From positions 1-35,255 of the forward strand of contig CACZXZ010000017.1 in the NCBI GenBank assembly GCA_902785325.1: a stretch of 35,255 nt of DNA, read 5' to 3'. Position 1 is the first letter of the stretch; the number at the start of each line of letters is the position of its first letter. Shown piece after piece: positions 17,372 to 34,182 of this stretch. This stretch comes from an uncultured Succinivibrio sp. (GTDB lineage Bacteria > Pseudomonadota > Gammaproteobacteria > Enterobacterales > Succinivibrionaceae). Below the pieces are notes generated by a model. The model ran no database searches, was not told the DNA's origin, and saw only the letters and a program-made list of their open reading frames with translations. A program made the position numbers and the translations under genes.

Positions 17372-17455
17372 AGTACCTTCCATTCAACGATGCTCTACTG
17401 TCTTTTAGTATAGAAAACTATTAGTTTTATATCAATTATAAATAAGCCATTTTTG

Positions 17456-18376: not shown

Positions 18377-18383
18377 GTGTGCT

Positions 18384-19145
18384 ATGACTAATAATACAGA
18401 AGCCTTAAAAAGCATGAGTCTAACAGCCCATTTTTTAGAGTTAAGAAAACGTATCGTACTGATATTATTAGGCTTAATATGTTGCACTATTGCTCTTTCT
18501 CCTTTTACAAATACTCTCTTTGAGTATTTCTCAAAACCACTGATGCAGGCTTTGCCACAAGGAGCTCAGTTACTTTCCGTTAGTGTTATTGCACCTGTTC
18601 TTGGTCCACTTAAAATATTACTATTTTGTGCTTTTTGCCTATCTCTTCCTTTTACTGTTTATCAAATTTGGATGTTTTTATCTCCAGCCTTATTTAAGAA
18701 AGAGAAAAAATTTGTGATTCCGCTTGTTATAAGCTCACTTTTGATGTTTGCATCAGGCGTTGCTTATTGCTACTTTGTAGTCTTTGGTTTTCTTTTCACC
18801 TTTATTGCCTCTTTTAGCCCTGATGCAATTAACTTTGCTCCAGACATCGATTCTTATTTAAGCTTTGTGTTACATATGTTTATAGCTTTTGGCGCAACTT
18901 TTGAAGTACCAGTTGCTGTTACTTTATTAGCATCCATGAATGTAGTCTCACTTGAAAAGTTGAAAAAGTTTAGACGCTATTTAATTGTTGTAGCCTTTGC
19001 TATTGCAGCTGTGTTAACCCCACCAGATATTGCTTCACAATTATTATTAGCTTTACCAATCATTATTCTTTATGAAGTTGGTATTGTTATTGCCACTATA
19101 TTTTGCAGAAGAAAAGAAAGTCTTCCAAAAGAAGATCTTGCATAA
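18384..19145 (+). CDS. tatC: Twin-arginine translocase subunit TatC
   Basis: Core six-helix membrane receptor that binds the RR motif of Tat signal peptides. I use the ATG at 18384, seven bases after the tatB stop, which gives MTNNTEALKSMSLTAHFLELRKR, the normal TatC N-terminus. An earlier in-frame TTG at 18363 inside tatB is less likely. Conserved segments include the cytoplasmic HFLELRKR, LPQG with the following periplasmic loop, ALFKKEKKFVIPL, FAFGATFEVPVA-like membrane sequence and AAVLTPPDIASQ. The length of 253 aa is close to E. coli (258). No clear terminator is visible in the 253-bp gap after it. Confidence 0.96.
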   Translation: MTNNTEALKSMSLTAHFLELRKRIVLILLGLICCTIALSPFTNTLFEYFSKPLMQALPQGAQLLSVSVIAPVLGPLKILLFCAFCLSLPFTVYQIWMFLSPALFKKEKKFVIPLVISSLLMFASGVAYCYFVVFGFLFTFIASFSPDAINFAPDIDSYLSFVLHMFIAFGATFEVPVAVTLLASMNVVSLEKLKKFRRYLIVVAFAIAAVLTPPDIASQLLLALPIIILYEVGIVIATIFCRRKESLPKEDLA

Positions 19146-19293: not shown

Positions 19294-19362
19294 ATGTTGC
19301 ACTTTAAACTATTTTTCCGATAGTTTACGTTGTACTTACAACATATATGTGGTACTTTAAAC
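19294..19362 (+). promoter_or_regulatory. Three operator-like motifs upstream of the phospho-lyase/aminotransferase
   Basis: Copies at 19294-19309 (ATGTTGCACTTTAAAC), 19327-19342 (ACGTTGTACTTACAAC, a near-perfect dyad GTTGT-ACTT-ACAAC) and 19347-19362 (ATGTGGTACTTTAAAC). They lie 37-105 bp before the ATG at 19399, overlapping the expected promoter. The same motif recurs at three other promoters of the cluster, which points to a shared regulator, most simply the DeoR-family protein at 31128. Confidence 0.65.
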
Positions 19363-19398: not shown

Positions 19399-20730
19399 AT
19401 GGCTATTAAATCTATTTTATCTATGAATGCTTTTGATCAAGCAAATTTTGATAGTCTACCAGAGGATGTAAAACCAGAAACTAAAAGACGATTAGATGTT
19501 TTTGGCTCTGCATCAGTCTTATTTTTCCAAGAACCAATTGAGGTAGTCAAAGGTGAAGGATGTTATTTAATTGATGCAAAAGGCACAAAATATCTAGACT
19601 GTTACAACAACGTTGCTTGTATTGGACATGGTCATCCTCGTGTAGCTGAGTATGTAGGCAAACAATTAGCAATTGTTAATACGCACACCCGCTACTTAAA
19701 TAAAGTTGTTGATGATTATGCAGAAAAACTATTAGCAACTTTTCCAAAGCCATTAGACAAAATTGCAATGACTTGTACAGGCTCTGAAAGTAACGACTTA
19801 GCTTTACGCTCAGCCTTCTACTACACTGGTGGTAAAGGTGTTATTGTAACCTCTGGTGCCTACCATGGTAATTCTTATTTAACCACCTTTGTATCTCCAT
19901 CAAGCACTAACGGTAAAATTACTTGCGACTTTGTAAAAACAGTTCCAGCTCCTGATACTTACCGTATACCAAAAGACCAACTAGCTGATAAATTTGCCAG
20001 TGATGTTGAAAAAGCAATTGAAGATCTCGAAGCTTCAGGTATTAAATTTGCAGCCTTACTTATTGATGATATCTTTTCATCAGACGGCGTATTCTCAGAT
20101 CCAGAAGGTTTTATCAAAAAAGCTGTTGATGTAGTACATAAGCATGGTGGTGTCTATATTGCTGATGAAGTTCAACCTGGATTTGGAAGAACAGGAAAAA
20201 TGTGGGGATTCCAAAGACACGGGGTAATACCTGATATTGTAACTATGGGTAAACCTATGGGTAATGGTTATCCAATGTCAGCAATGGTTACTCGCAATGA
20301 AATTATTGATGCTTTAAAGCAAACTGGTTACTTTAATACCTTTGGTGGTACCCCAGGAGCTTGCGCTGCTGGTACTGCGGTTTTAGAAGTACTAAAGGAA
20401 GACAATTTAATTGAGAATGCAAAAGAAGTTGGCGATTACTTAAGAGATGGCTTAAGAGCCCTTAAAAAGGATCATCCTTGCATAGGAGACGTAAGAGGTA
20501 CAGGTTTATTTACTGGATTAGAACTTGTAAAAGATCCTGAAACTAAAGAGATCGATCCAAAAGGAGCTACACTTTTAATCAATAGACTTCGCTACAACAA
20601 CGTACTAATTGGTGCTGCAGGTCCATATGGAAATATTCTAAAGATCCGACCACCACTACGTTTCTACAAAAAAGATGCTGACTTCTTTATTGAAGCTATC
20701 AAAAAATCTTTAACAGAAATTCACCTTTAG
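19399..20730 (+). CDS. Class-III PLP aminotransferase-fold enzyme, AGXT2L-type phospho-lyase candidate
   Basis: A 443-aa fold-type I PLP enzyme. Its N-terminal block, with YLDCYNNVACIGHGHPRV (65-82) and NTHTRYL (94-100), is the hallmark of the AGXT2-like branch that includes ethanolamine-phosphate and 5-phosphohydroxylysine phospho-lyases. PLP-site residues are GSES (128-131), AYHG (154-157), Asp256 in IADEVQ, and the Schiff-base Lys285 in MGKPMGNGYP. Members of this branch convert a phosphorylated amino-alcohol to an aldehyde, ammonium and phosphate; others are ordinary omega-aminotransferases. The kinase at 22970-23977, under the same operator motif, makes the phospho-lyase reading attractive. 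AGGAG lies 5 nt upstream of the ATG and a terminator follows, so it is monocistronic. Confidence 0.8.
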   Translation: MAIKSILSMNAFDQANFDSLPEDVKPETKRRLDVFGSASVLFFQEPIEVVKGEGCYLIDAKGTKYLDCYNNVACIGHGHPRVAEYVGKQLAIVNTHTRYLNKVVDDYAEKLLATFPKPLDKIAMTCTGSESNDLALRSAFYYTGGKGVIVTSGAYHGNSYLTTFVSPSSTNGKITCDFVKTVPAPDTYRIPKDQLADKFASDVEKAIEDLEASGIKFAALLIDDIFSSDGVFSDPEGFIKKAVDVVHKHGGVYIADEVQPGFGRTGKMWGFQRHGVIPDIVTMGKPMGNGYPMSAMVTRNEIIDALKQTGYFNTFGGTPGACAAGTAVLEVLKEDNLIENAKEVGDYLRDGLRALKKDHPCIGDVRGTGLFTGLELVKDPETKEIDPKGATLLINRLRYNNVLIGAAGPYGNILKIRPPLRFYKKDADFFIEAIKKSLTEIHL

Positions 20731-20739
20731 AAATGAAAG

Positions 20740-20769
20740 TGCGCTAAATCAAAGATTTGGCGCATTTTT
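20740..20769 (+). terminator. Intrinsic terminator after the aminotransferase
   Basis: Stem GCGCTAAATC (20741-20750) pairs with GATTTGGCGC (20754-20763), with one wobble pair, an AAA loop and a T5 tail. It isolates the aminotransferase from the MFS gene. Confidence 0.85.
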
Positions 20770-20871
20770 GACTTACCTAATACTTTTACATTTATCCTCA
20801 AAATTCTTGCATGTAATTCTTTCTATTAGCAAAGCCTTGCCTATACTCATAATATAGACTAAGGATTTTGC

Positions 20872-22092
20872 ATGAAGAAAAAAGACAAAGCTAAAAAAGA
20901 AAAGACTAAAACTAGTTTTCAAAAGAAAAAACTTGGGCTTGCAAGAAACGTAATTGGTGCTGGATTTACTAGTTTCTTTACTGATACTGCCACAAAAATG
21001 ATTTACGCTGTAATGCCGATGTTTTTACTCTCAATTGGAGCGAGTGCTACAGCTATTGCTTTAATTGAAGGTATTGCTGAAAGTACCGCTGCTATTCTTA
21101 AAGCTATCTCAGGCTATATCAGTGACCGTATTGGAAAAAGTAAGCCTTTTATGATCATAGGTTATGGTCTTGCTTCCTTAGTCTTACCTTTATATGCCCT
21201 TGCAACTTTACCTATTCATGTATTGCTAATCCGCTTTACAGAGCGTGTTGGTAAAGGTATACGCTCAGCTCCTCGTGATAGCTTAATTAGTAATTCCATC
21301 AAAAGAAAAGTTGCAGGTAAAAGTTTTGGATTCCAAAAGGCTATGGATGACAGTGGTGCAGTGTTAGGACCACTACTTGCTTGTCTTATTCTTTATCTGA
21401 TGCCTGGAAACTACCACTTAGTATTTTTATTAGCAGTGATACCTGCAATTTGTGGTGTAGCTTGTGTAGTGTTCTTTGTAAGAGAAGTACACCTTAAAAG
21501 AGAGCATCAACAACAAGATGCAAAATTTAAGTGTTCTCAATTTAAGCAATTGCCAAAAAAGTACTTTCAATTTTTGTTGGTGATCTTTATCTTTTCCCTT
21601 GGAAATTCCTCAGATGCGCTCTTACTTTTAAAGGCAGCAACCACAGATATCAATCCTATCTTTGTGCCTTTTATCTTTATGCTTTTTAGTACTACCTCTG
21701 TGTTATGCGCTATGCCGGTTGGAAAATTGTCCGACAAAATTGGCAGACCAAAACTTATGGCTTTAGGCTTTTTGATTTATTCTTTAAGTTACCTAGGCTT
21801 TGGTCATTACGACAACTTTTTAGCTTTTATACCATTGTTTATCATGTATGGTATTTACAGTGCACTAGCAGATGTTTCCCAAAAATCCTTAATCTCAGAT
21901 ATCACGACACCTGAAACTAAAGGTACAGGCTATGGTTTGTATCATGCAACTTTAGGTTTAACCTTGTTGCCAGCAAGTTTCATAGGTGGTTATTTATACG
22001 ATCATGTAAACAATCAAGTACCTTTCTATTTTGGCTCTGTAACAGCCTTTATTGCTTGTATCTTGATGTTCTACTTTTTCAGGAAGGATTAG
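20872..22092 (+). CDS. MFS transporter, drug-efflux-like
   Basis: A 406-aa 12-helix major facilitator protein. After a Lys-rich cytoplasmic N-terminus (1-20) comes NVIGAGFTSFFTDTATKMIYAVMP, then the MFS motif A GYISDRIGKSKP (81-92), the subfamily signature RVGKGIRSAPRDSLIS (125-140) and a second motif-A copy GKLSDKIGRPK. This signature belongs to a poorly characterised branch usually annotated as a multidrug or unknown MFS transporter. The substrate cannot be read. It has its own upstream gap (140 bp) without the cluster operator motif, so it may be a bystander or may export a by-product of the neighbouring pathway. It converges on the SDR gene. Confidence 0.82.
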   Translation: MKKKDKAKKEKTKTSFQKKKLGLARNVIGAGFTSFFTDTATKMIYAVMPMFLLSIGASATAIALIEGIAESTAAILKAISGYISDRIGKSKPFMIIGYGLASLVLPLYALATLPIHVLLIRFTERVGKGIRSAPRDSLISNSIKRKVAGKSFGFQKAMDDSGAVLGPLLACLILYLMPGNYHLVFLLAVIPAICGVACVVFFVREVHLKREHQQQDAKFKCSQFKQLPKKYFQFLLVIFIFSLGNSSDALLLLKAATTDINPIFVPFIFMLFSTTSVLCAMPVGKLSDKIGRPKLMALGFLIYSLSYLGFGHYDNFLAFIPLFIMYGIYSALADVSQKSLISDITTPETKGTGYGLYHATLGLTLLPASFIGGYLYDHVNNQVPFYFGSVTAFIACILMFYFFRKD

Positions 22093-22098
22093 GCTTTT

Positions 22099-22134
22099 GC
22101 CATACAACAGCACCGCAATTACAAGTTGTATGGC
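22099..22134. repeat. Inverted repeat between the convergent MFS and SDR genes
   Basis: GCCATACAAC (22099-22108) and GTTGTATGGC (22125-22134) form a perfect 10-bp stem with a 16-nt loop. Neither side carries a T-run in the direction of the incoming gene, so it is not a standard intrinsic terminator, although the location between convergent genes suggests a role in 3' end formation. Confidence 0.5.
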
Positions 22135-22152
22135 ATAAAGACAGACATTTGA

Positions 22153-22959
22153 CTAAGCATTTTCCTGCTCAAAATCTTTGCGCATTAGCTCTAAAGCTCC
22201 TGCACACTCAGGTAAAACCTGACCCCCATCAATGACTAAATTATGGCCATTGATATACCAAGATTCTTTAGCTGCTAAAAATAAAGCTCCATTAGCAATT
22301 TCAAAACCTGTGCCTAATTTACCTACAGGAACTGATTTACACATAGAGTTAACATATTCTATGCCTAAAGATTCAAGACCTTCTGTTAGTACATTGCCGG
22401 GAGATACTGCATTAACGGTAATGCCATATGGAGCAAGCTCCATAGCAGCTGTATGCATAAAACCTAATTGAGCTGCTTTACTTGCACCATAATGAGCCCA
22501 ACCTGGATATCCTGTGATAGGACCTGTAATAGATGAAGTCAGAATAATTCTGCCATAACGTTGCATCTTCATCTGCTCCATTACAGCCCAAACAGCATGA
22601 AAAGTACCTTTAACATTGATATTCATGACATAGTCATAATCTTGATCTGTCATTTTAGAAAGTGGTACTTGAGGAATTACACCTGCATTAGAGAGTAAAA
22701 TATCAATAGAGCCAAAGGTATCAACTGTGGTTTTTGCAACCTTTTTCATATCATCAAAGACACTTACATCGGCAGCTATTGCTAAGGCTTTGCCTCCATC
22801 TTTTTCAATTAAAGAAACCACTTCATCTAAGGCACTTTTACGTCTTGCTACACAAACTACATTACAACCTTCACGACCAAAGGTTAAAGCCATAGCTTTA
22901 CCAATACCAGCGCTGGCACCTGTGACAATTACAGTCTGACCTTTTAACGAAGAAAACAT
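22153..22959 (-). CDS. Short-chain dehydrogenase/reductase (SDR)
   Basis: A 268-aa NAD(P)-dependent classical SDR. TGASAGIG (13-20) is the cofactor loop, NAG (91-93) the structural motif, and Ser143, Tyr157 and Lys161 (HYGASKAA) the catalytic residues. SPGNV is at 186-190, and the C-terminal INGHNLVIDGG is typical of FabG-like enzymes. Arg39-Arg40 after the second strand favour NADP(H). It is 10 bp downstream of the kinase gene and certainly in its operon. It probably oxidises or reduces an alcohol/carbonyl in the pathway; the exact substrate is not deducible. Confidence 0.88.
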   Translation of the reverse strand: MFSSLKGQTVIVTGASAGIGKAMALTFGREGCNVVCVARRKSALDEVVSLIEKDGGKALAIAADVSVFDDMKKVAKTTVDTFGSIDILLSNAGVIPQVPLSKMTDQDYDYVMNINVKGTFHAVWAVMEQMKMQRYGRIILTSSITGPITGYPGWAHYGASKAAQLGFMHTAAMELAPYGITVNAVSPGNVLTEGLESLGIEYVNSMCKSVPVGKLGTGFEIANGALFLAAKESWYINGHNLVIDGGQVLPECAGALELMRKDFEQENA

Positions 22960-22969
22960 CTTGCGCTCC

Positions 22970-23977
22970 TTATTTTAAATAGGTACCAGCTAAATACTCG
23001 TTACACAATCTAACGGTATCCCTAGTTACATTAGCGCCTTCTTTAGCAGCAAAAGGAACCTCACTGTGACTTGCGCACCAAGTCATAAGCTCAATACGCC
23101 TTAAGATAGAAAAAGTAGGTAATAAAGATTTTTCGTAAGCTGACAACTTATTTACTTTCTCATAACCTTTAACCCAAGCTTTAGCTAATTTAGGTGCATC
23201 AACAGCCTGATCCATAAAACTAATTGCTGCTGCAAAGTCAAACAAGTACCAACCAAAGCCCATATCATCAAAGTCGATAACATGTAATTGGTCGCCATCT
23301 ACTAATAAGTTTGTAGCTCTGCAATCAGAATGAATTACCCCAAAATTCTCATCATTGATGCCATACTCATCTAAGATTGGCTTTACAACATCTAAGGTCT
23401 TACCTACAACTTTTTTGTCATCTTCACTAAGCCCCACTCCTTGATGCCAATCTCCCCAGTAAGCATGCTCACCGATAATGCCGTCATAATCCCAAACACG
23501 TCTTGTAAACCAAGATGGTCTTTTCCAAGATCTAGCTTGATTGTGCATCTTGGCACTAATCTCACCTACCACTTCAAACCAGTGATCTAAGCCGGCTAAC
23601 TCTAAAGTAGGCTCTTTACCATTAAGTTTTTCAAACGCTACTACCATGCGCTCTTCACCAGCATCAGTCTTAGTAGTTGCAACATATTCACCATTAACTA
23701 AAGGTACAGGCTTTGCTGTAGAAATAGTATGTGAATCATAAAGAGCTTTTACCCAAGCTAATTCTGAACGAATAGCATCTTTTGTGGAGTAATCATTACG
23801 TTGCACTCTAATGATGATCTCCTGACCTGTTTTAGGATCACTTGCACTAAAAGTTGCGTTTTCAGATAAATTGATTAGTTTTGCTTGTGCTTGATCACTC
23901 ATTCCCCATAAAGGAAGAGACTTATTTACCATCTTAGTTAAAGCTGCAACTGTTTGTGGCTCATACTCTTTGCTCAT
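22970..23977 (-). CDS. APH-family small-molecule kinase (amino-alcohol/hydroxylysine kinase-like)
   Basis: A 335-aa phosphotransferase of the APH/choline-kinase fold. The catalytic loop HSDCRATN (216-223: His216, Asp218, Asn223) and metal-binding IDFDDMGFG (234-242) are clear. An N-terminal lobe with NLSENATF (36-43) and IIIRVQR (54-60) contains the nucleotide-contact region. Relatives include hydroxylysine kinase, homoserine kinase II and aminoglycoside phosphotransferases. Because the motif-linked aminotransferase is of the phospho-lyase type, phosphorylation of an amino-alcohol is the best guess, as in human hydroxylysine catabolism (HYKK then PHYKPL). It is divergent from receptor gene 1 with a shared operator region, and co-transcribed with the SDR. 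Confidence 0.75.
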   Translation of the reverse strand: MSKEYEPQTVAALTKMVNKSLPLWGMSDQAQAKLINLSENATFSASDPKTGQEIIIRVQRNDYSTKDAIRSELAWVKALYDSHTISTAKPVPLVNGEYVATTKTDAGEERMVVAFEKLNGKEPTLELAGLDHWFEVVGEISAKMHNQARSWKRPSWFTRRVWDYDGIIGEHAYWGDWHQGVGLSEDDKKVVGKTLDVVKPILDEYGINDENFGVIHSDCRATNLLVDGDQLHVIDFDDMGFGWYLFDFAAAISFMDQAVDAPKLAKAWVKGYEKVNKLSAYEKSLLPTFSILRRIELMTWCASHSEVPFAAKEGANVTRDTVRLCNEYLAGTYLK

Positions 23978-23992
23978 ATTTTCGCACCTCTA

Positions 23993-24141
23993 ATGTTGTA
24001 CTTAATCTAAAGAAAATGTTGTATCTTTATCTTTAACATATATCGATGTTGCACTTCAGTCAATACAATTATAATTATTTTGGCATTTAAACATTTTTTT
24101 ATTGTATTTACAACATTTGTGTTTTATATTTTATACAACAT
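23993..24141. promoter_or_regulatory. Five operator-like motifs in the divergent kinase/receptor promoter
   Basis: On the plus strand: 23993-24008 (ATGTTGTACTTAATCT), 24016-24031 (ATGTTGTATCTTTATC) and 24046-24061 (ATGTTGCACTTCAGTC). On the minus strand: 24101-24116 (ATGTTGTAAATACAAT, dyad-like) and 24126-24141 (ATGTTGTATAAAATAT). The two groups point towards each other, one near each gene start, as expected for co-regulation of both directions by one factor. Confidence 0.65.
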
Positions 24142-24182
24142 CAACATTTCTCTGAACTAAGTAACACTATTAGGAGCGTTTT

Positions 24183-25310
24183 ATGACAATGTTAACTCGC
24201 CGTTCTATTCTTAAAGCTATAGGTGCATCCTCTTTATTAAGCAGTCAAGGACTTTTAGCTAGTAAAGCTTTTGCAGGAGAAAGAGATGATCAATTAAACA
24301 TCTTATGCTGGGAAGGCTATAACTCTGCAGAGGTGTTAGATCCTTATCGCACCTTAAAATCAGCCAACGTTAAAGCTGAATCTGCAACAAATGATCCAAC
24401 CATGGTAAATAAGCTTCGCGCAGGTGAAACTAAGGTGTGGGATCTTATAAATGTAAACAATCCTTGGGCTCGTAAAATTTTGTTTCCTGAAGGTTTAATC
24501 CTTCCTTTAGATAAGGATGAATTTGCACCATTCTTTGACAAGATGCTACCAACCTTTAAATTTCCTTACGATTGGGCAATGTCCGTTGATGGAAGTCAAT
24601 TATTAGGTATGGCTCAGCGTTTTGGACCTTTTAATTTTGTGGTTAATACCGATAAGATCTCAAGAAAAAGTGCTGAGGAAATTGGGTGGAAACTCTTTAC
24701 CGATCCTGCCTTGAAAGGTAAATTTGCAATTCAAGAATCAGACGATTGGAACGTTGCACATATCTTTGCTATTGCAGGTATAGATCCTTATAAGGAGCAT
24801 ACAAAAGATGAAATGGATGCTTTTGCAAAAATGAGTAAATACATCTTCTCAAATGCTAAGTTTGTAGGAGACATTGCAGCGGTAAATCAAGGCTTAGTCA
24901 ACGGTGAAATTGATGCTTATATCTCAGGTGGTACCTATACTGCATCTTTAGCAAGAGCTGAAGGTCTATCAAACATCAGAGCTATATCTCCTAATAAAGA
25001 TGCCTACATGTGGGTAGAGTTAACCTCTGTTGTAAACAATCCAAACAAAACTCCACTTGCTTATGACTTCTTAAAATATGTACAAACACCAGAGGTTGCA
25101 CATACTGTAGCTTTTGCAGAAGGCACCTTCAATCCAGTTGCACAAATGGGAAATAAGGAGTGTTTTAATCTGTTCACTAATGATGAATTAGATGCAATTC
25201 AGTATGACTCTCTTGAAGAGGAAATGTCTCGTTCAAGAGCTTACGATATTGTTCCTGACTACGATAAAGCTCATGACATTATGGTAGAAGCTAAACGCAA
25301 TAAAGGATAA
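24183..25310 (+). CDS. PotD/F-like ABC solute-binding protein 1, Tat-exported
   Basis: A 375-aa periplasmic receptor related to spermidine/putrescine-binding proteins (LNILCWEGYN just after the signal, WDLINVNNPWAR, ISGGTYTASLA, YMWVELTSVVNNP, FLKYVQTPEVAHTVAF). The signal peptide has the twin-arginine motif LTRRSILK (Arg6-Arg7), a moderately hydrophobic core and a probable AFA-GE cleavage after residue 31, so it should be folded in the cytoplasm and exported by Tat. AGGAG precedes the ATG. A terminator follows, so it is a single-gene unit facing away from the kinase. It shares most of its sequence with receptors 2 and 3. The ligand is probably a cationic amine or amino-alcohol. Confidence 0.87.
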   Translation: MTMLTRRSILKAIGASSLLSSQGLLASKAFAGERDDQLNILCWEGYNSAEVLDPYRTLKSANVKAESATNDPTMVNKLRAGETKVWDLINVNNPWARKILFPEGLILPLDKDEFAPFFDKMLPTFKFPYDWAMSVDGSQLLGMAQRFGPFNFVVNTDKISRKSAEEIGWKLFTDPALKGKFAIQESDDWNVAHIFAIAGIDPYKEHTKDEMDAFAKMSKYIFSNAKFVGDIAAVNQGLVNGEIDAYISGGTYTASLARAEGLSNIRAISPNKDAYMWVELTSVVNNPNKTPLAYDFLKYVQTPEVAHTVAFAEGTFNPVAQMGNKECFNLFTNDELDAIQYDSLEEEMSRSRAYDIVPDYDKAHDIMVEAKRNKG

Positions 25311-25328
25311 ATATGAATTTTGATATGA

Positions 25329-25358
25329 AGAGATCTTAAAACTAAGATCTCTTTTTTT
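25329..25358 (+). terminator. Intrinsic terminator after receptor 1
   Basis: Stem AGAGATCTTA (25329-25338) with TAAGATCTCT (25343-25352), loop AAAC, then T7. Confidence 0.9.
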
Positions 25359-25398
25359 GTCTTATCAGCTGTTCACCAAACTAGAACAATTTGCAAAA

Positions 25399-25489
25399 AT
25401 GTTGCACCTTAAACAATAAACTCTGCACCATTCCAACAATATTTTTAATAAATATATCTCAAAATAACACTTTTTGTTGCACGTACAAT
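25399..25489 (+). promoter_or_regulatory. Operator-like motifs upstream of receptor 2
   Basis: ATGTTGCACCTTAAAC at 25399-25414 and TTGTTGCACGTACAAT at 25474-25489, the latter containing the dyad TTG-(C/T)A-nn-TACAA. They lie 50-140 bp before the ATG at 25539. This implies separate but parallel control of the receptor 2-receptor 3 transcript. Confidence 0.6.
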
Positions 25490-25538
25490 ATTTCCATTGT
25501 TAGATAAACACAACACAAAGATTTAATCGGAGAAAAAT

Positions 25539-26666
25539 ATGACAGATTTAACCAGAAGAAGTTTATTAAAAGCATTATCAGCAGGAGCAATTGCCTCAAG
25601 TTCTCTTTCAGTAGCAGCTAAAGCTTTTGCAGTTTCAAGAGAAAAAGAATTGAACATTTTATGTTGGGAAGGATATAACTCTGCTGATGTATTAGATCCT
25701 TACAGAAAATTAAGAAGTGCCACTGTTCACGCTGAATCTGCCACCAACTCCCCTACCATAGTAAATAAGCTTCGTGCAGGCGAAACTAAAGTATGGGATT
25801 TAATCAATGTTGATAATCCTTGGGCCCGTGAATTCATGTACCCAAATAATTTGATTTTACCTTTACCAATTGAAGAGTTTGCCCCTTACTTTGACAAGAT
25901 GTTGCCATTCTTTAAATACCCATTTGATTGGTCTATGTCAACTGATGGTACTAAGTTACTAGGTATGGTGCAGCGCTTTGGTACTAATAACTTTGTGGTA
26001 AATACCGACAAAATCTCTCGCAAGACAGCAGAAGAGCAAGGTTGGAAACTTTGGGCAGATGACAGCCTAAAAGATCGCTATGCTATCAATATTGCAGATG
26101 ACTGGAACGTTTGTCATATGTTCGCTATTGCAGGTATCGATCCATATAGAGAGCACACAAAAGAGGAAATGGAGCTTTATACCAAAACTTGTAAGAGAAT
26201 TTTTGCTAACGCTAAGTTTGTTGGTGATATTGCAGCTGTAAACCAAGCTTTAGTAACTGGTGATATCGATGTTTATCTATCAGGTGGCACCTATACTTCA
26301 TCTCTTGCAAGAGCTGATGGTTATGACAACATTAGAGCTATTTCTCCAAATAAAGATGCTTACATGTGGATTGAAATTACCTCCCTTGTAAACAATCCTG
26401 AATTATCACCTCTAGCTATGGACTTCTTAAAGTATGTTCAAGAGCCTGAAGTTGCACATACTGTAGCCTTTGCTGAAGGAACCTTTAACCCTGTAGCTCA
26501 AATGGCAAATCCTGAGTGCTTTAAACTCTTTACTAAAGAAGAGTTAGACATCATTCAATATGATTCTCTTGAGGAAGATTTAACTAAATGTAGGGCAGAT
26601 GACATTATCCCTAACTACGATGAAGCTCATGAGATCATGGTCGAAGCAAAGCGTGTAAAAGGTTAA
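25539..26666 (+). CDS. PotD/F-like ABC solute-binding protein 2, Tat-exported
   Basis: A 375-aa paralogue of receptor 1 with the same blocks and the twin-arginine signal LTRRSLLK (Arg6-Arg7); cleavage is likely after KAFA. Ligand-pocket neighbourhoods differ from receptor 1 at several places (for example TNSPTIV for TNDPTMV, and QRFGTNNF for QRFGPFNF), so ligand preference may differ. RBS GGAG lies 6-9 nt before the ATG. Only 48 bp separate it from receptor 3, with no terminator between them, so the two form one operon. Confidence 0.87.
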   Translation: MTDLTRRSLLKALSAGAIASSSLSVAAKAFAVSREKELNILCWEGYNSADVLDPYRKLRSATVHAESATNSPTIVNKLRAGETKVWDLINVDNPWAREFMYPNNLILPLPIEEFAPYFDKMLPFFKYPFDWSMSTDGTKLLGMVQRFGTNNFVVNTDKISRKTAEEQGWKLWADDSLKDRYAINIADDWNVCHMFAIAGIDPYREHTKEEMELYTKTCKRIFANAKFVGDIAAVNQALVTGDIDVYLSGGTYTSSLARADGYDNIRAISPNKDAYMWIEITSLVNNPELSPLAMDFLKYVQEPEVAHTVAFAEGTFNPVAQMANPECFKLFTKEELDIIQYDSLEEDLTKCRADDIIPNYDEAHEIMVEAKRVKG

Positions 26667-26714
26667 TTAAAACTTAATACATTGATAAAGGAAACTTGTA
26701 AGTTCGGAGGTCGT

Positions 26715-27842
26715 ATGACTAATTTAACTCGTCGTTCATTGATAAAAGGTCTTGGTGCAGGTGCATTACTTTCATCTAACTTGTCAGTAGCTTCTAAGGC
26801 TTTTGCAGGAGAGCGAGATAAGGAACTAAATATTCTTTGCTGGGAAGGTTATAACTCAGCTGAGGTGCTGGATCCTTACCGAAAATTACGAGGCGCAACC
26901 GTAAGCGCAGAATCAGCTACAAATGATCCTACCATGGTTAACAAGCTTCGTGCTGGTGAAACAAAGATTTGGGATCTAGTAAACCTTAACAACCCTTGGG
27001 CTCGTAAAGCCTTGTATCCAGAAGGGTTAATTACCCCTCTTAACAAAGAGGAATTTGCTCCATACTTTGACAAGATGATGCCAATCTTTAAATACCCTTA
27101 TGATTGGGCTATGAGTGAAGATGGTAAAGAGTTATTAGGTATGGTACAACGTTTTGGTCCTTACAACTTTGCTGTTAACACCGATAAGATCTCCCGTAAA
27201 ACTGCCGAAGAACAAGGCTGGGCTATCTTCCGCGATGACAGTTTAAAAGGTAAGTACGGCATTAACGAAACCGATGATTGGAACGTAGCACACCTCTTCA
27301 TGATTGCAGGTATCGATCCTTATAGAAAGCACACAGAAGATGAACTTGAGACCTTTAGGGAAACTTGCAATAGGATCTTTGCTAATACCAAATTTGTGGG
27401 CGATATTGCAGCTATGAACCAAGCTCTAGTAAACGGTGATATTGACTGCTACATCTCAGGTGGTACCTACACAGCTTCTATAGCAAGAGCTGAAGGTCTT
27501 GAGAATATCCGTGCAATTTCTCCACTTAAGGATGCTCTAATGTGGGTAGAGGTAACTTCTATTGTGAATAATCCAGTTCACTCTCCTCTTGCAGAAGACT
27601 TCCTAAAGTATGTTCAAGATCCAACCGTATCTCATACAGTTGCCTTTGCTGAAGGAACCTTTAACCCTGTAGCACAAATGTCAAATCCAGAATGCTTTAA
27701 GTTATTTACTAAAGATGAACTTATGGCAATTCAATATGACTCTCTTGAAGAAGAGATGTCTCGTTCAAGAGCATACGATATCGTTCCTGATTACGATAAA
27801 GCTCATGACATCATGATGGAAGCTAAACGTACTAGAGGATAA
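26715..27842 (+). CDS. PotD/F-like ABC solute-binding protein 3, Tat-exported
   Basis: The third paralogue. I use the ATG at 26715 rather than the earlier in-frame ATG at 26682. It has GGAGG 4 nt upstream, gives exactly 375 aa as in the other two receptors, and puts the twin-arginine motif LTRRSLIK at the same positions (Arg6-Arg7). It keeps LNILCWEGYN, QRFGPYNF, SGGTYTASIA and the C-terminal SLEEEMSRSRAYDIVPDYDK shared with receptor 1. A terminator follows, then a 350-bp regulatory gap before the ABC ATPase. Receptor 3 is closer to receptor 1 than to receptor 2 in several blocks, consistent with successive tandem duplications. Confidence 0.87.
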   Translation: MTNLTRRSLIKGLGAGALLSSNLSVASKAFAGERDKELNILCWEGYNSAEVLDPYRKLRGATVSAESATNDPTMVNKLRAGETKIWDLVNLNNPWARKALYPEGLITPLNKEEFAPYFDKMMPIFKYPYDWAMSEDGKELLGMVQRFGPYNFAVNTDKISRKTAEEQGWAIFRDDSLKGKYGINETDDWNVAHLFMIAGIDPYRKHTEDELETFRETCNRIFANTKFVGDIAAMNQALVNGDIDCYISGGTYTASIARAEGLENIRAISPLKDALMWVEVTSIVNNPVHSPLAEDFLKYVQDPTVSHTVAFAEGTFNPVAQMSNPECFKLFTKDELMAIQYDSLEEEMSRSRAYDIVPDYDKAHDIMMEAKRTRG

Positions 27843-27865
27843 TTATTCCTATATTGCACAATCTT

Positions 27866-27888
27866 GCCGGCTATATGCCGGCTTTTTT
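27866..27888 (+). terminator. Intrinsic terminator after receptor 3
   Basis: GCCGGC (27866-27871) and GCCGGC (27877-27882) pair around TATAT, followed by T6. Confidence 0.9.
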
Positions 27889-28051
27889 GTCTAAAACAAG
27901 GCAAAAGTATTGCTTGCGCAATCAAAGTGCAGAGTTTGCACCAAGATTTTTTTTGCCCGTCTTTTGAAAGTTCCACATCCACTTACAAAATTAAATTATT
28001 TATATAAATCAATATGTTATAAATGTAATTCTGCATTTACATGATAAATTT
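27889..28051. other. Non-coding stretch with two small dyads
   Basis: No ORF is convincing here. Two small inverted repeats are visible: 27909-27922 (ATTGC-TTGC-GCAAT) and 27927-27941 (GTGCA-GAGTT-TGCAC). Together with the motifs that follow they make the leader of the ABC operon unusually long (about 320 bp after the terminator), leaving room for a complex promoter or a small RNA. Confidence 0.4.
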
Positions 28052-28137
28052 GATGTAAATTCAACATTTTTTATAGTGCAAATGTTTAACCTAAACATAA
28101 TTATGTTGTATCTCACACATCATTGATGTACTTTAAA
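28052..28137 (+). promoter_or_regulatory. Operator-like motifs upstream of the ABC ATPase operon
   Basis: ATGTTGTATCTCACAC at 28103-28118, ATTGATGTACTTTAAA at 28122-28137 (a weaker copy that keeps the GTACTTTAAA half), and ATGTTGAATTTACATC on the minus strand at 28052-28067. They lie 70-155 bp before the ATG at 28208. This matches the positions of the other copies in the cluster. Confidence 0.55.
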
Positions 28138-28207
28138 ACCATGAAGCTTGGGAACCAATCCAAAATTCTAAAATTCAATCAATACTATAAAAATAATGGA
28201 GTTGCTT

Positions 28208-29320
28208 ATGATTAGCTCTAAAAACGAAGTTACCCAGAATGTAGCTGAAGAAATTAAACCAGGTCAACCACTCCTTGATCTAGTTAATGTGTGCAGAGAT
28301 TTTGACAAAGTTAAAGTAATTAAAAACGTAAACCTTGTAGTTAAAAAGAACGAATTCTTTACCTTAGTTGGACCATCAGGCTCAGGTAAAACCACCATCT
28401 TAAAAATGTTAGCAGGTATGGATCAACCAACCTCTGGTGATATTGTGCTAGGTTCAAAAAGTATCTCAACTCTACCACCAGATAAGAGACCTACTTGCAT
28501 GGTGTTCCAGTTCCTAGCCCTTTTTCCTCACATGACAGTAGGTCAAAACATTGAGTTTCCTATGCGTGTAAAAGGAATGAGAGCTGAGGACTGTATTGCT
28601 AAAGCACAAAAGTTACTAGACTTAGTTCACTTACCTGAAGATTACTACAACAAGAACGTAATGAAGTGCTCTGGTGGTGAGAGACAACGTGTTGCAATTG
28701 CTCGTGCTCTAGCCTACGACAGTGAAATCATTCTTTTTGATGAGCCTTTATCAGCTATCGATGCAAAACTTAGAAAGACTTTACAAAAAGAATTAAAGGA
28801 TTTACATCGCAGATCAGGAAAAACCTTTATCTACATTACTCACTCCCTTGAAGAAGCTATGTTTATGTCTGACAGAGTGGGAGTACTTTGCAAAGGTGAG
28901 TTAAAGCAAGTAGGTACTCCTGAGGAAATCTACGCTCACCCAGTCTCAAGATTTGTCGCTGAGTTTATTGGTGATGTGAATATCTTCCCAATCCGTGTAA
29001 AGCCAACTGGCGGTTGGGGTAGTACCGATTTCCCAGGTCAACTCTTTAAGGTTGAACCTCATGGAGATGATTTAGAAGGTTACATTATCGTAAGACCTGA
29101 AGCCTTAAAACTTGTAAAAGAAGGTACTCAAGTAGATAACGTTATTGAGTGTAAAGTTTTAAACCAATTCTCCCTAGGTTCTCGCTCTCAATTCCAATTA
29201 GCCTGTGGCAAAAAAGAAATTACTTTAGAGCTACCTCGTAGTGAAGTAGATCTAAATAGCGTAGGTAAAACCATCAAGATTGGTTGGAATGCTCATGATG
29301 CTATCTTTGTTACGGAGTAA
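28208..29320 (+). CDS. ABC transporter ATP-binding protein (PotA-like)
   Basis: A 370-aa ATPase that powers the importer. The start is set at ATG 28208 because GGAG lies 6 nt upstream; the in-frame ATG at 28196 lacks a ribosome site. Walker A GPSGSGKTT is at 55-63, the Q-loop Gln at 101 (VFQFLALFPHM), the signature CSGGERQ at 154-160, Walker B ILFDEP with Asp178-Glu179, and the switch His212 (ITHSLEEA). A C-terminal TOBE-type domain follows (from about 240). The length and the TOBE domain place it in the polyamine/opine/iron group. It is followed by the two permease genes with 5- and 9-bp gaps. Confidence 0.92.
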   Translation: MISSKNEVTQNVAEEIKPGQPLLDLVNVCRDFDKVKVIKNVNLVVKKNEFFTLVGPSGSGKTTILKMLAGMDQPTSGDIVLGSKSISTLPPDKRPTCMVFQFLALFPHMTVGQNIEFPMRVKGMRAEDCIAKAQKLLDLVHLPEDYYNKNVMKCSGGERQRVAIARALAYDSEIILFDEPLSAIDAKLRKTLQKELKDLHRRSGKTFIYITHSLEEAMFMSDRVGVLCKGELKQVGTPEEIYAHPVSRFVAEFIGDVNIFPIRVKPTGGWGSTDFPGQLFKVEPHGDDLEGYIIVRPEALKLVKEGTQVDNVIECKVLNQFSLGSRSQFQLACGKKEITLELPRSEVDLNSVGKTIKIGWNAHDAIFVTE

Positions 29321-29325
29321 AGATT

Positions 29326-30219
29326 ATGACTAAATTCTCTGTTCAAAAAATTAAAAGCTCCCTCACAGAGTTTATAAGCTCTAAAGGCGGAAAGTGTGCT
29401 TTACCTGTATATATCCTATTAACATTAGGATTTGTAGCTCCACTATTTATGGTGTTAGGGTTCTCCTTTGCAACTCCTCGCTCCTTTAGTGCTTTTACAT
29501 CTTTTTCACTAGACAACTTTATCCAGATCTTTGACGGATCAACCTCTGTTTGGAGATCTTTTCTATGGTCTATTGCCCTTGCAGCTTTTGTAACCGCAAT
29601 TTTAGCTGTGGTTTGCTATCCTGTAGCCGTTGGCATGGTAAGAATTTTTGGTTCAAAAACTTCTACTTTTATTAGTATATTGTTTGTGTTCCCTTTATTC
29701 GTATCAGAAAACGTAAGATTATATGGCTGGATCTTATTCTTTGGTAAAAACGGTGTTTTAGATGGTATTTGTAAATTATTAGGATTTCACGGTCCTGATA
29801 TTCTATTTACTCCAGGAATGACCGCTATGGGTCTTGCCTACTCCTATCTTCCATATATGCTATTCCCAGTAATCATGGGTGTAGCTCTAGTGCCAAAGGA
29901 TTTAATCACCGCAGCTCGTGATTTAGGCTCTTCAAGACTTCGCACTTGGTGGCAAATTGAATTACCACTTGCAATGCCAGGTGTGCTAATTGGTATGTTA
30001 CTAACCTTTGTATTAGCTACAGGTTCAATGTCTGAATCAAAGATCTTAGGTGGTCAATCCATCATCGTAATCACTAACGATATCGATGTATCCTTTACAT
30101 TCTCTCAAAACTGGCCTCAAGGTGCAGCTTTAGCTGTGGTTCTAACTCTGATTATTGGCTCCCTTACCCTATATGCCTTTAAGAAGATTGATTTAGATAA
30201 ACTTATGGGTCGTTCATAG
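29326..30219 (+). CDS. ABC transporter permease 1 (PotB-like)
   Basis: A 297-aa inner-membrane subunit with six predicted helices beginning at about residue 25. The cytoplasmic EAA loop that docks on the ATPase is AARDLGSSRLRTWWQIELPLAMPG (positions 196-219, key residues Ala196, Asp199, Gly201 and Pro214). GGAG precedes the start. It pairs with permease 2 as PotB does with PotC. The single permease pair must serve all three receptors. Confidence 0.92.
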   Translation: MTKFSVQKIKSSLTEFISSKGGKCALPVYILLTLGFVAPLFMVLGFSFATPRSFSAFTSFSLDNFIQIFDGSTSVWRSFLWSIALAAFVTAILAVVCYPVAVGMVRIFGSKTSTFISILFVFPLFVSENVRLYGWILFFGKNGVLDGICKLLGFHGPDILFTPGMTAMGLAYSYLPYMLFPVIMGVALVPKDLITAARDLGSSRLRTWWQIELPLAMPGVLIGMLLTFVLATGSMSESKILGGQSIIVITNDIDVSFTFSQNWPQGAALAVVLTLIIGSLTLYAFKKIDLDKLMGRS

Positions 30220-30228
30220 GAGGCTTAT

Positions 30229-31038
30229 ATGGAATATACAAAACAAGGTAGACGCAACCGTACCCTCATCATTATTTGGACTATATTTGTTATTGCATTT
30301 ATCTATTTGCCTGTTATTTGTGATGCTTTATCCTCCATCTCAAAAGGCAGATACTTCATGTTCCCAATCAAGAAATTTAGTCTAGATTGGTGGAGCAAAA
30401 CTGCAAACTCTATTGAAATTAGCTCCCTTGTAAGCAACTCACTTTTAATTGCTTTTGTGGTAACTATTCTAAGTACTGTAATTGCATTTTGTGGTGCTTT
30501 AGCTTTTGCTAGATTCTCTTGGAAAGGTAAAAAATTATTCCAAAAGATCATTTTACTACCAGTGTTCTTCCCTCAACCTGTACTAGGTCTAGCCCTATTA
30601 CTTTGGTTCAACGCTATTGGTATTAACCTATCTTGGCAAACTGCTGTATTTGCTCACTTAGTTTGGATCACACCTGTGGTAACTTTAGTAATTGCTATTC
30701 AAGTTTACGGATTTGATCCTACTCTTGAAGATGCAGCTAGAGATTTAGGTGCAACTCCATTCCAAATCTTCTACCGCATCACCTTACCTCTGTTATGGCC
30801 TGGTGTATGGTCAGGAATGCTATTTGCATTCCTACTATCCTGGGGTAACTTCCCTCTATCTTTGTATACCACAGGTGTAGATAACACTGTTCCTAAGTGG
30901 TTATACTCAAAGATGGTTGCAGGTTATACTCCTATGGTTCCAACCTTAGGTACCATGAGTACTCTAGGTGCTGCAGGCTTAATGTTAGTAGGAGCACTAA
31001 CTGTATATATGATGCATCGTCGTCAAGGCAGAGCTTAA
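30229..31038 (+). CDS. ABC transporter permease 2 (PotC-like)
   Basis: A 269-aa inner-membrane subunit with six helices. The EAA loop runs at about 168-192 (DAARDLGATPFQIFYRITLP, then a conserved Pro-Gly). A strong AGGAGG lies upstream of the ATG, 9 bp after permease 1. It is the last gene before the terminator at 31060. Confidence 0.92.
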   Translation: MEYTKQGRRNRTLIIIWTIFVIAFIYLPVICDALSSISKGRYFMFPIKKFSLDWWSKTANSIEISSLVSNSLLIAFVVTILSTVIAFCGALAFARFSWKGKKLFQKIILLPVFFPQPVLGLALLLWFNAIGINLSWQTAVFAHLVWITPVVTLVIAIQVYGFDPTLEDAARDLGATPFQIFYRITLPLLWPGVWSGMLFAFLLSWGNFPLSLYTTGVDNTVPKWLYSKMVAGYTPMVPTLGTMSTLGAAGLMLVGALTVYMMHRRQGRA

Positions 31039-31059
31039 TACAATGCTAGAAAAATAAAG

Positions 31060-31098
31060 CGGTGACCTTTATAATAAATTTGCTTAAGGCACCGTTTT
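31060..31098 (+). terminator. Terminator after the ABC operon
   Basis: CGGTGaCCTT (31060-31069) pairs with AAGGCACCG (31086-31094), with one bulged A, followed by TTTTAT. It overlaps the GTG at 31062, which argues against that codon as the start of the next gene. Confidence 0.7.
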
Positions 31099-31127
31099 AT
31101 ATCATTGAGCAATTTGAGGCTCTGAAG

Positions 31128-31928
31128 ATGGATCTAAAAAGAAATAAATTAACTAAACCTGAAAGACAAAAACTCATAACTGATAAACTAAAAGAGCAAC
31201 CTGCTCTTAGAGTTTCTGAGTTATCCCAAGACATTGGCGTTTCTACAGAAACTATTAGACGTGATCTTGATGAGCTTGAAGCCCAAGGTTTAATTAGTCG
31301 CACTTATGGCGGAGCTGCCCCTGCTTTAAATAAAGAGCCTTCTTTTAAACAAAGAGAACTTATCAATGCTAAGCAATATGAAATTATTGCTAAAGCTTGT
31401 TGCCACTATGTGCAAAACGGTGAAGTGCTAATTCTTGGAAGCTCTGTAACTACTTTGCAAGTAGCAATAAGACTTGCAGCTGAGAAAAAAGATCTCTGCG
31501 TATTTACAGATTCTTATGCGATTGCCTCAGCCCTATCCTCAAATAACACCATTAAAGTTCACCTAGCACCAGGCTCCTTTAATGATGATGAGAGTTGTGT
31601 CTATGGACCTGAGACTATTAACTACTTTGCAAACATCTATGCAAATAAAGCTATTTTAGGCGCTACAGGTTTAAATCAGAATGGCGTATCAAATGTAGAT
31701 CTTGAAATTGGTGAAACTTATAAAGCTATGGCAAGATGCGCAAGCGAAACTATCATCGTTGCAGATAGCTCAAAGATTTCAAGAAATGCTATTTCTCTAT
31801 ACTTACCATGGACTAATGTAGATAGACTAATTATCGATAAACCACCTTTTGATGAAAGTTTAGTAGTCGGATTAAAACACGGTAACGTTGAGGTTACCAT
31901 TGCCTCAGAATCTAGTTGGTCCTTCTAA
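31128..31928 (+). CDS. DeoR-family transcriptional regulator
   Basis: A 266-aa repressor-type protein. I choose ATG 31128 (GAGG 8 nt upstream) over the in-frame GTG at 31062, because the latter lies inside a terminator hairpin and would add an atypical 22-residue hydrophobic leader. The DeoR winged helix is at about 11-63 (ELSQDIGVSTETIRRDLDEL, then RTYGGA), followed by the DeoRC sensor domain with the GSSVTTLQVA phosphate-loop-like segment and the FANIYANKAILGATGLN, ETYKAMARCASETIIVADSSK blocks. Relatives usually sense a phosphorylated metabolite, which fits a kinase-dependent pathway. It is the best candidate to bind the 16-bp motifs; no copy was seen directly upstream of it, so autoregulation is unclear. 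Confidence 0.9.
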   Translation: MDLKRNKLTKPERQKLITDKLKEQPALRVSELSQDIGVSTETIRRDLDELEAQGLISRTYGGAAPALNKEPSFKQRELINAKQYEIIAKACCHYVQNGEVLILGSSVTTLQVAIRLAAEKKDLCVFTDSYAIASALSSNNTIKVHLAPGSFNDDESCVYGPETINYFANIYANKAILGATGLNQNGVSNVDLEIGETYKAMARCASETIIVADSSKISRNAISLYLPWTNVDRLIIDKPPFDESLVVGLKHGNVEVTIASESSWSF

Positions 31929-32059: not shown

Positions 32060-32653
32060 TTAAGACTTTTTCATGATCTTTTTATAGATATAAGCAATTG
32101 CAGCTATAAATAGCATCAAACCAATAGCTGTAGCAATGGTTTCATGACCTAAAAAGCCTATAGCGATAGGATTATCACTTCCACCTGTAGTAGATGAAAC
32201 CATGATAATCATCGCAATTAGCACACCAATTAAGCTTTCACCAACAATTAAGCCTGCAGCTAATAAAGTACCACGATGATTTGCTTCTTTTAAAGTTTCA
32301 CTATAGGTAGAACCTTGATGTTTAAATTTAATCACTCTTGAGACAAACCAAGCGATTAAACCACCAAAGAAGATTGGAGTAACAATTGAAGGTGGTAGAT
32401 AAATACCAAAACCTACCGCTAATGGTGGTAGAGCAAGACGGCCATTTGAGGACTTATTTAATAAAACATCAATTAAGATCACAACCACACCAAGCACTGT
32501 TCCTATAATGACATAAGTCCATTCTAGTTGATGAGTAAAAATGCCATCAGCAATAGTAGCCATTAAGTTTGCCTGTGGAGCACTTAAAGCTAAGCTAGGA
32601 TCCATACCTTCTCTTGGCATCGCACCTGTAAAACCATAAGCTTGATAGAGCAA
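32060..32653 (-). pseudogene. OPT-family oligopeptide transporter, C-terminal fragment
   Basis: C-terminal third of an OPT transporter: helices around LEWTYVIIGTVLGVVVILIDVLL, FGIYLPPSIVTPIFFGGLIAWFV, then GTLLAAGLIVGESLIGVL, the last helix and a short tail. The listed start is an internal TTG. The homologous frame actually opens at about 32695, where codons repeat the CIVGAFVIAPV peptide that also ends the central fragment, before continuing into LELLYQAYGFTG. The two fragments are thus the same gene interrupted by a 64-bp partial duplication. It may not be translated on its own. Confidence 0.8.
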
Positions 32654-32658
32654 TTCAA

Positions 32659-32758
32659 GTACAGGAGCAATTACAAAAGCGCCTACGATACAACTTTAAT
32701 TTTCATCACGACAAGCATCTTGGTACAGGAGCAATTACAAAAGCGCCTACGATACAAC
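32659..32758. repeat. 36-bp direct repeat pair (64-bp offset) breaking the OPT gene
   Basis: Identical 36-bp copies at 32659-32694 and 32723-32758 (starting GTACAGGAGCAATTACAAAA) flank 28 bp of unrelated sequence. Total extra DNA is 64 bp, which is not a multiple of three, so it shifts the frame. Removing one copy plus the filler restores a continuous OPT reading frame from GCIVGAFVIAPV to LELLYQAYG. It may be a real duplication or an assembly artefact. Confidence 0.85.
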
Positions 32759-34162: not shown

Positions 34163-34182
34163 GAAAAAACGCTCCAATATAA

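What the first reader, a model, noticed from the sequence alone, without database searches (positions are those of the whole stretch)
19399..31928. Candidate uptake-and-phospholysis system for an amino-alcohol
Under one motif are an AGXT2L-type PLP enzyme, an APH-fold kinase, an SDR, three polyamine-type receptors, an ABC importer and a DeoR regulator. Known precedent is phosphorylation of 5-hydroxylysine (HYKK) then elimination by PHYKPL, or the ethanolamine-phosphate counterpart ETNPPL, giving aldehyde, ammonium and phosphate. DeoR proteins often sense phosphorylated intermediates, which would be the kinase product. The combination with triple receptors in a gut-type gammaproteobacterium is not one I know as described. 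Collagen- or lipid-derived amines would be plausible substrates.
Basis: partly seen in the sequence, partly recalled or inferred. Interest (0 to 1): 0.72.

Follow-up and report, generated by a model that had tools for sequence, protein, structure and literature searches.

The report
Shell-less aminopropanol uptake and breakdown cassette
A bacterium, probably from an animal gut, carries genes that most likely import a small amino-alcohol (1-amino-2-propanol or its ketone form, aminoacetone), tag it with phosphate and split it into ammonia and an aldehyde; the three enzymes resemble those of a known bacterial protein-shelled compartment, but here they come with their own importer and no shell.

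The parts
19399..20730 (+). class III PLP-dependent phospholyase (predicted 1-amino-2-propanol O-phosphate phospho-lyase), ETNPPL/AGXT2L clade
   Evidence: PDB best 6tor human ETNPPL E 3e-104, 5g4i phospholyase E 1e-97, next 3e-59; tree 98/99 with both, apart from E. coli PatA/PuuE/GabT; motifs YNN-V with 2-residue gap, MGKPMGNG, FNTFGG
22153..22959 (-). SDR, predicted 1-amino-2-propanol dehydrogenase / aminoacetone reductase
   Evidence: best PDB 6ci8/6ci9 E 4e-79, 49% identity; NCBIfam would call it FabG (NF004202, 352.6 over cut-off 333); 59-61% identical orthologues in L005, L006 and L089
22970..23977 (-). APH-fold kinase, predicted 1-amino-2-propanol kinase
24183..25310 (+). solute-binding protein 1, twin-arginine start TRRSILK
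   Evidence: SBP_bac_8; 72-77% to the other two; matches at E 1e-40 in the same 4 of 56 family genomes as the strong kinase matches
25539..26666 (+). solute-binding protein 2, twin-arginine start TRRSLLK
26715..27842 (+). solute-binding protein 3, twin-arginine start TRRSLIK
28196..29320 (+). ABC importer ATPase
29326..30219 (+). ABC importer permease 1 (PotB-like, below cut-off)
30229..31038 (+). ABC importer permease 2 (PotC-like, below cut-off)
31128..31928 (+). DeoR/GlpR-type regulator
   Evidence: HTH_DeoR and DeoRC; 53-56% in L004-L006, 40-41% in two Agrobacterium cassettes
19328..19343 (.). palindromic operator-like site CGTTGTACTTACAACA before the phospholyase gene
   Evidence: 1 mismatch to TGTTGTAnnTACAACA
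24100..24115 (.). palindromic operator-like site TATTGTATTTACAACA between kinase and receptor 1
   Evidence: 1 mismatch
25475..25490 (.). operator-like site TGTTGCACGTACAATA before receptor 2
   Evidence: 2 mismatches
28104..28119 (.). weaker operator-like site TGTTGTATCTCACACA before the ATPase (another at 28051-28066 with 2 mismatches)
   Evidence: 3 mismatches

Best explanation
It is a DeoR-regulated uptake and breakdown cassette for 1-amino-2-propanol and/or aminoacetone, a shell-less counterpart of the RMM (aminoacetone utilization) microcompartment pathway. Inferred steps: receptors with twin-arginine starts and the ABC importer bring the amine in; the SDR reduces aminoacetone to 1-amino-2-propanol (or is bypassed when the alcohol itself is imported); the kinase makes 1-amino-2-propanol O-phosphate; the PLP phospholyase eliminates ammonia and phosphate to give propionaldehyde; with no shell and no suitable aldehyde dehydrogenase found in this draft genome, the aldehyde is most likely reduced to 1-propanol by an iron-type alcohol dehydrogenase, so the pathway would serve mainly as a nitrogen source and a sink for reducing power. 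Shown here: gene content, family placement, synteny, co-occurrence, no PF00936 shell protein found. Inferred: substrate, stereochemistry, direction, export route, aldehyde fate, effector of the regulator.
Against: Kinase identity to 6ef6 is only 36%, and the kinase tree leaves 6ef6 unresolved and puts the kinases of the shelled loci L007 and L052 in another group than the window's. The SDRs 3pk0/3rih score nearly as well as 6ci8 and I do not know their function. Nothing was assayed. The receptor model failed (pLDDT 44), so there is no pocket evidence. A 44% receptor homologue in Antarctobacter lies with glutamine synthetase-like and amidohydrolase genes and no annotated kinase in the stretch; Shinella homologues at about 30% were not looked at. 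Three of 18 fetched kinase loci have no class III PLP partner within about 10 kb, and 16 of 18 lack this importer. The genome is a 101-contig draft, 97.4% complete; an aldehyde dehydrogenase could be in a gap, and two of the four carriers do have a full-length one (type not determined). Only PF00936 was sought among shell families. An iron-type threonine dehydrogenase is not excluded (one search lists that model below its cut-off).
Confidence: 0.7

Rival explanations
1. The same chemistry on ethanolamine: import, phosphorylation to phosphoethanolamine, elimination to acetaldehyde, ammonia and phosphate.
For: The PLP enzyme's top PDB match is human ethanolamine-phosphate phospho-lyase, 45% identity. 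Kinase and phospholyase occur without an SDR of this type in the stretch in, for example, L050, L053, L056 and L100.
Confidence: 0.13
2. Another amino-alcohol (a hydroxylated polyamine such as hydroxyputrescine, or another vicinal amino alcohol) taken up by a polyamine-type importer and split by the same route.
For: Importer ATPase and permeases resemble PhnT2, PotA, PotB and PotC, all below cut-off; receptors weakly match PotD/PotF-type proteins. Three receptors might mean several ligands.
Against: The importer also accompanies kinase and SDR in the shelled loci L007 and L052. Receptor 1 matches polyamine-binding proteins only weakly (E 2e-7 at best).
Confidence: 0.1
3. The first reader's hydroxylysine route (HYKK then PHYKPL).
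For: Same enzyme classes: APH-fold kinase and AGXT2L-type lyase.
Against: The closest solved kinase is the aminopropanol kinase; the SDR has no obvious role. I had no HYKK or PHYKPL sequence for the trees, so this branch was not tested directly.
Confidence: 0.04
4. The PLP enzyme is an ordinary omega/polyamine transaminase and the kinase is a drug-modifying enzyme that happens to be adjacent.
For: Pfam class III aminotransferase and APH domains; annotation of the A. fabrum counterparts reads 'aspartate aminotransferase family protein', 'phosphotransferase enzyme family protein', 'FabG'.
Against: Tree and motifs, kinase-lyase pairing in 13 of 18 fetched loci, fold ranking, and NCBIfam model PRK06148, one long protein that matches the PLP enzyme (589-1011, E 3e-138) and weakly the kinase (46-289, E 1e-7), both far below its cut-off.
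Confidence: 0.03

Closest known systems
RMM / aminoacetone-utilization (Aaum) bacterial microcompartment of Mycobacterium smegmatis and Rhodococcus (Mallette and Kimber 2018, titles seen; Axen et al. 2014, PMC4207490, passages seen)
   Same: SDR, APH-fold kinase and class III PLP enzyme; the RHA1 locus holds a kinase homologue and a PLP enzyme of the same type
   Different: No PF00936 shell protein in the genome; no aldehyde dehydrogenase apart from a ProA-like protein; DeoR regulator instead of the GntR named for RMM1; dedicated ABC importer with three receptors
Agrobacterium cassettes: ATU_RS25115-25070 (A. fabrum C58 pAt) and CFBP5877_RS26710-26745
   Same: Same eight functions; receptors with twin-arginine start
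   Different: One receptor instead of three; C58 adds an isochorismatase-type hydrolase and a short unnamed gene; kinase and phospholyase in tandem; annotation does not name the pathway
Human ETNPPL (6tor) and Arthrobacter phospholyase (5g4i)
   Same: Phospholyase clade and motifs
   Different: 45% and 40% identity; outside the window enzyme's 16-row subclade
Aminoacetone / 1-aminopropan-2-ol O-phosphate phospho-lyase route described biochemically in Pseudomonas in the 1970s (recalled, not read)
   Same: Kinase then phospho-lyase logic
   Different: Genes were not known then (recalled); organism here is a Succinivibrionaceae draft

Membership tests
Class III PLP phospholyase (ETNPPL/AGXT2L type) | Grouping with characterised phospholyases, apart from transaminases | tested here: met
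   98/99 support with 6tor and 5g4i; PatA, PuuE, GabT outside (midpoint root, several long branches, window row flagged for letter make-up)
Class III PLP phospholyase (ETNPPL/AGXT2L type) | Sequence features shared by the two solved phospholyases and absent from the three E. coli transaminases | tested here: met
   NN-V with two-residue gap, MGKPMGNG, FNTFGG or close variants
Class III PLP phospholyase (ETNPPL/AGXT2L type) | Phosphate-binding residues and lyase activity | not tested
   Residues not checked against a published list; activity needs an assay
1-amino-2-propanol kinase (6ef6 family) | Closest solved relative is 6ef6, with shared catalytic motifs | tested here: met
1-amino-2-propanol kinase (6ef6 family) | Grouping with 6ef6 in a tree of the kinase family | tested here: inconclusive
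   6ef6 sits at an unresolved fork
1-amino-2-propanol kinase (6ef6 family) | Activity on (S)-1-amino-2-propanol | not testable with these tools
   no assay
1-amino-2-propanol dehydrogenase (6ci8/6ci9) | Closest solved relative, conserved active-site stretch | tested here: inconclusive
   best hit, 49%, but 3pk0/3rih nearly tie; that 6ci8/6ci9 are this enzyme is recalled, the search prints them as 3-oxoacyl-ACP reductase
RMM/AAU microcompartment | BMC shell proteins | tested here: not met
   no PF00936 match in the genome; other shell families not sought
RMM/AAU microcompartment | Aldehyde dehydrogenase in the locus | tested here: not met
   the only PF00171 match in the genome is elsewhere and ProA-like
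Polyamine ABC importer (PotABCD/PotFGHI) | Receptor of the PotD/PotF family at curated cut-off | tested here: not met
   window receptors score 23 bits at best against cut-offs of 582 and 636

The most novel reading that the evidence does not exclude
An unassigned ABC importer family, with receptors exported by the twin-arginine route, is the dedicated transporter for aminoacetone/1-amino-2-propanol. It travels both with shelled (RMM-like) and shell-less versions of the pathway, and in gut Succinivibrionaceae the pathway runs without shell or aldehyde dehydrogenase, ending in propanol, with receptor (three) and kinase (two in one relative) duplications tuned to different enantiomers or to ketone versus alcohol.
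Probability: 0.35. Interest if true: 0.55.

Novelty: new variant of a known kind. Interest (0 to 1): 0.4.

Why it matters
If right, it names the substrate of an uncharacterised importer and of a gene set that annotation hides under 'FabG', 'aspartate aminotransferase family', 'phosphotransferase' and 'PotD/PotF family'. It shows the aminoacetone/aminopropanol route working without its microcompartment, which bears on why some bacteria shell this aldehyde pathway and others do not, and it gives some Succinivibrionaceae a use for a small amine. The Agrobacterium counterpart makes the claim easy to test.

Tried and rejected
MFS gene 20872-22092 as part of the unit: rejected; no match to it in the stretches L004-L006 or L088-L092, and no half-site upstream. 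It was not sought elsewhere in those genomes.

PLP enzyme as polyamine transaminase: rejected by tree and motifs. The own-genome ArgD-like protein (L001) was offered to the tree script but fell out at its length/E-value filter, so the 33-row tree lacks it. Five rows are long-branched. Most rows were picked because they lie near a kinase, so their clustering is not independent evidence of pairing.

Zinc-type threonine dehydrogenase as internal source of aminoacetone: no PF08240 match in the genome.

Structure of receptor 1: predicted, pLDDT 44, not used.

Operator as a clean regulon marker: at up to 3 mismatches 315 places against 256 in the reversed control. With at most 2 mismatches it recurs before the phospholyase gene and between receptor and kinase in L005, but in none of L004, L006, L007, L042, L052.

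Of 21 non-window places listed, 18 were fetched; G441, G178 and G106, among the weakest, were not.

Papers: the Mallette and Kimber kinase paper is not held and the dehydrogenase paper was seen only as a reference; what they say beyond their titles is recalled, including that aminopropanol kinase is widespread and often paired with a candidate phospholyase. Passages only were seen in PMC4207490, PMC8007038, PMC8156839, PMC6787980, PMC8262871, PMC10710832 and a reference entry in PMC6620236. Search listings (the longer ones show only the top rows) showed no paper on this importer or cassette; most subscription journals are not in that library.
Full report
What is there. The span holds eleven genes: a class III PLP enzyme, an MFS transporter, an SDR and an APH-fold kinase on the minus strand, three solute-binding proteins, an ABC ATPase, two permeases and a DeoR-type regulator. 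That gene has no match in the related stretches L004-L006 and none of the shared half-sites upstream, so I leave it out of the unit.

It is a unit. The window's genome is a draft of 101 contigs; its relatives G034, G047 and G013 match in contig length the records titled Succinatimonas sp. UBA7265, uncultured Aeromonadales RUG12150 and Candidatus Anaerobiospirillum merdipullorum, so I place it in the Succinivibrionaceae by inference. Over 56 genomes of the family, strong kinase matches (E below 1e-100) occur in 4 and receptor matches (E at most 1e-40) in 4, the same four: G000, G034, G047, G013. Eight further genomes had weak kinase matches (E 2e-6 to 1e-3, over part of the protein), which I count as other APH-family proteins. 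The phospholyase is in all four, and so are SDR, ATPase, permeases and regulator. In G047 the pieces lie on three contigs. G034 has three receptors and two kinases; G013 and G047 have one receptor each.

It recurs outside the family. In plasmid records, 13 Agrobacterium plasmids carry both the receptor (62-65%) and the kinase (41-43%), the same 13 accessions in both searches (20 and 22 records in all). I read two: A. fabrum C58 pAt and A. tumefaciens CFBP5877 hold kinase, phospholyase, SDR, receptor, ATPase, two permeases and DeoR regulator, 40-72% identical to the window's proteins. In a sample of 398 genomes of the phylum, 20 had a kinase match at 1e-40, the window's own included. Of the 21 non-window places listed I fetched 18 with about 10 kb on each side. 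An ETNPPL-type PLP enzyme lies nearby in 13 of 18, only a different class III PLP enzyme in 2 (L051, L052), none in 3 (L045, L055, L057); an SDR of at least 48% identity in 9 of 18; the importer with receptor in 2 of 18 (L042, L052); shell proteins like those of the Rhodobacter locus in 1 of 18 (L052). So the importer is a minority companion of the kinase family as a whole.

The PLP enzyme. Human ETNPPL and the Arthrobacter phospholyase are by far its best solved relatives (E 3e-104 and 1e-97; the next is 3e-59). In a 33-row tree it sits with both at 98/99, away from E. coli PatA, PuuE and GabT, and inside a 16-row subclade (98/96) that excludes both solved enzymes. Fourteen of those 16 rows have a kinase of this family in the stretch; L088 has its kinase on another contig, and the surroundings of L070 were not read. 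Since most rows were chosen by that neighbourhood, this is not independent evidence. Three sequence features (NN-V with a two-residue gap, MGKPMGNG, FNTFGG or a close variant) are shared by it and both solved phospholyases and absent from the E. coli transaminases.

The SDR. NCBIfam would name it FabG. Its best solved relatives are 6ci8 and 6ci9 (49% identity), followed closely by 3pk0 and 3rih. [quoted passage not shown] smegmatis RMM microcompartment; the title of that paper is in a reference list I saw, but the link to those PDB codes is from memory, and a text search for the codes found nothing relevant.

Why aminopropanol. In passages I saw, RMM is described as proposed to metabolise aminoacetone to propionyl-CoA (PMC8156839) and as 1-amino-2-propanol utilising (PMC6787980). 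Axen et al. list a phosphotransferase and a short-chain dehydrogenase in RMM1, cite that dehydrogenase as converting amino-2-propanol to aminoacetone, and discuss the aminotransferase acting on aminoacetone to give methylglyoxal, a different chemistry from the one proposed here (PMC4207490). In the RHA1 RMM locus I confirmed a kinase homologue (32%) and a PLP enzyme of the window's type (43%; 24% to the other type) among annotated shell and aldehyde dehydrogenase genes. The three enzymes of the window thus point to one pathway, and the SDR, which has no obvious place in a hydroxylysine or ethanolamine route, gets one.

The importer. The receptors share 72-77% identity with each other and start with twin-arginine motifs (TRRSILK, TRRSLLK, TRRSLIK; a twin arginine in every relative read). 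I read this by eye as a Tat signal; the Tat models in NCBIfam score below cut-off. They match polyamine receptors only weakly (receptor 1: E 2e-7; all three: at most 23 bits against cut-offs of 582 and 636). The same importer accompanies kinase and SDR in Rhodobacter sp. Har01 (L007) and in L052, both with shell proteins, which is the main reason to think it carries the pathway's substrate. Against exclusivity, a 44% homologue in Antarctobacter sits in another context. The structure prediction of the receptor failed.

No shell, and where the aldehyde goes. The genome has no PF00936 match; other shell families were not sought. Its only PF00171 match is a 418-aa protein beside what reads by eye as ProB, so I call it ProA. 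Of the four carriers, G034 and G047 have one full-length aldehyde dehydrogenase each, of undetermined type, and G000 and G013 only a weak ProA-like match. The genome has three iron-type alcohol dehydrogenases over the Pfam cut-off, best matching the PRK15138 alcohol dehydrogenase model, below its cut-off. Reduction of propionaldehyde to propanol is therefore my inference. The draft is 97.4% complete, so absence is not proof.

Regulation. A palindrome TGTTGTAnnTACAACA is found with one mismatch at 19328-19343 and 24100-24115, two at 25475-25490 and 28051-28066, and three at 28104-28119. Two of the five genome places with one mismatch are these. In L005, versions with two mismatches lie before the phospholyase gene and between receptor and kinase; none with two or fewer were found in L004, L006, L007, L042 or L052. 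It is a reasonable operator for the DeoR protein, but that is inference.

Verdict. The enzyme trio is known; the shell-less form with a dedicated importer in Succinivibrionaceae is a variant I found no description of in the searches listed, in a library that lacks most subscription journals.

Noticed in passing
window 17969-19145; L088, L091, L092: A TatB-like gene (below cut-off) and a tatC gene (over cut-off) lie directly before the phospholyase gene, and a TatC-like gene, read by eye, is next to it in the three relatives too (divergent in L088), while the cassette's receptors start with twin-arginine motifs. Whether the adjacency means anything was not tested.
   Followed up: partly
L091 / L005 (7586-8611 and 10001-11014): Two kinase genes, 56% and 59% identical to the window's, interleaved with three receptor genes in one Succinatimonas draft.
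   Followed up: partly
L007, L051, L052: These loci use a different class III PLP enzyme (the L007 one is about 25% identical to the window's) beside the kinase and SDR; L007 and L052 also have the importer and shell proteins, L051 shows neither in its stretch. The L007 enzyme matches putrescine aminotransferase models below their cut-offs.
   Followed up: partly
L007, L046, L051, L052, L096: An isochorismatase-type cysteine hydrolase accompanies these versions outside the family; its role is unknown.
   Followed up: no
window 32060-34177 (-): Three adjacent minus-strand ORFs look by eye like one oligopeptide-transporter-type membrane protein split over frames; family not searched.
   Followed up: no
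window 16019-17383 (-) and L091 11991-13253 (-): A similar P-loop ATPase, by eye, lies near the cassette in both; likely unrelated.
   Followed up: no
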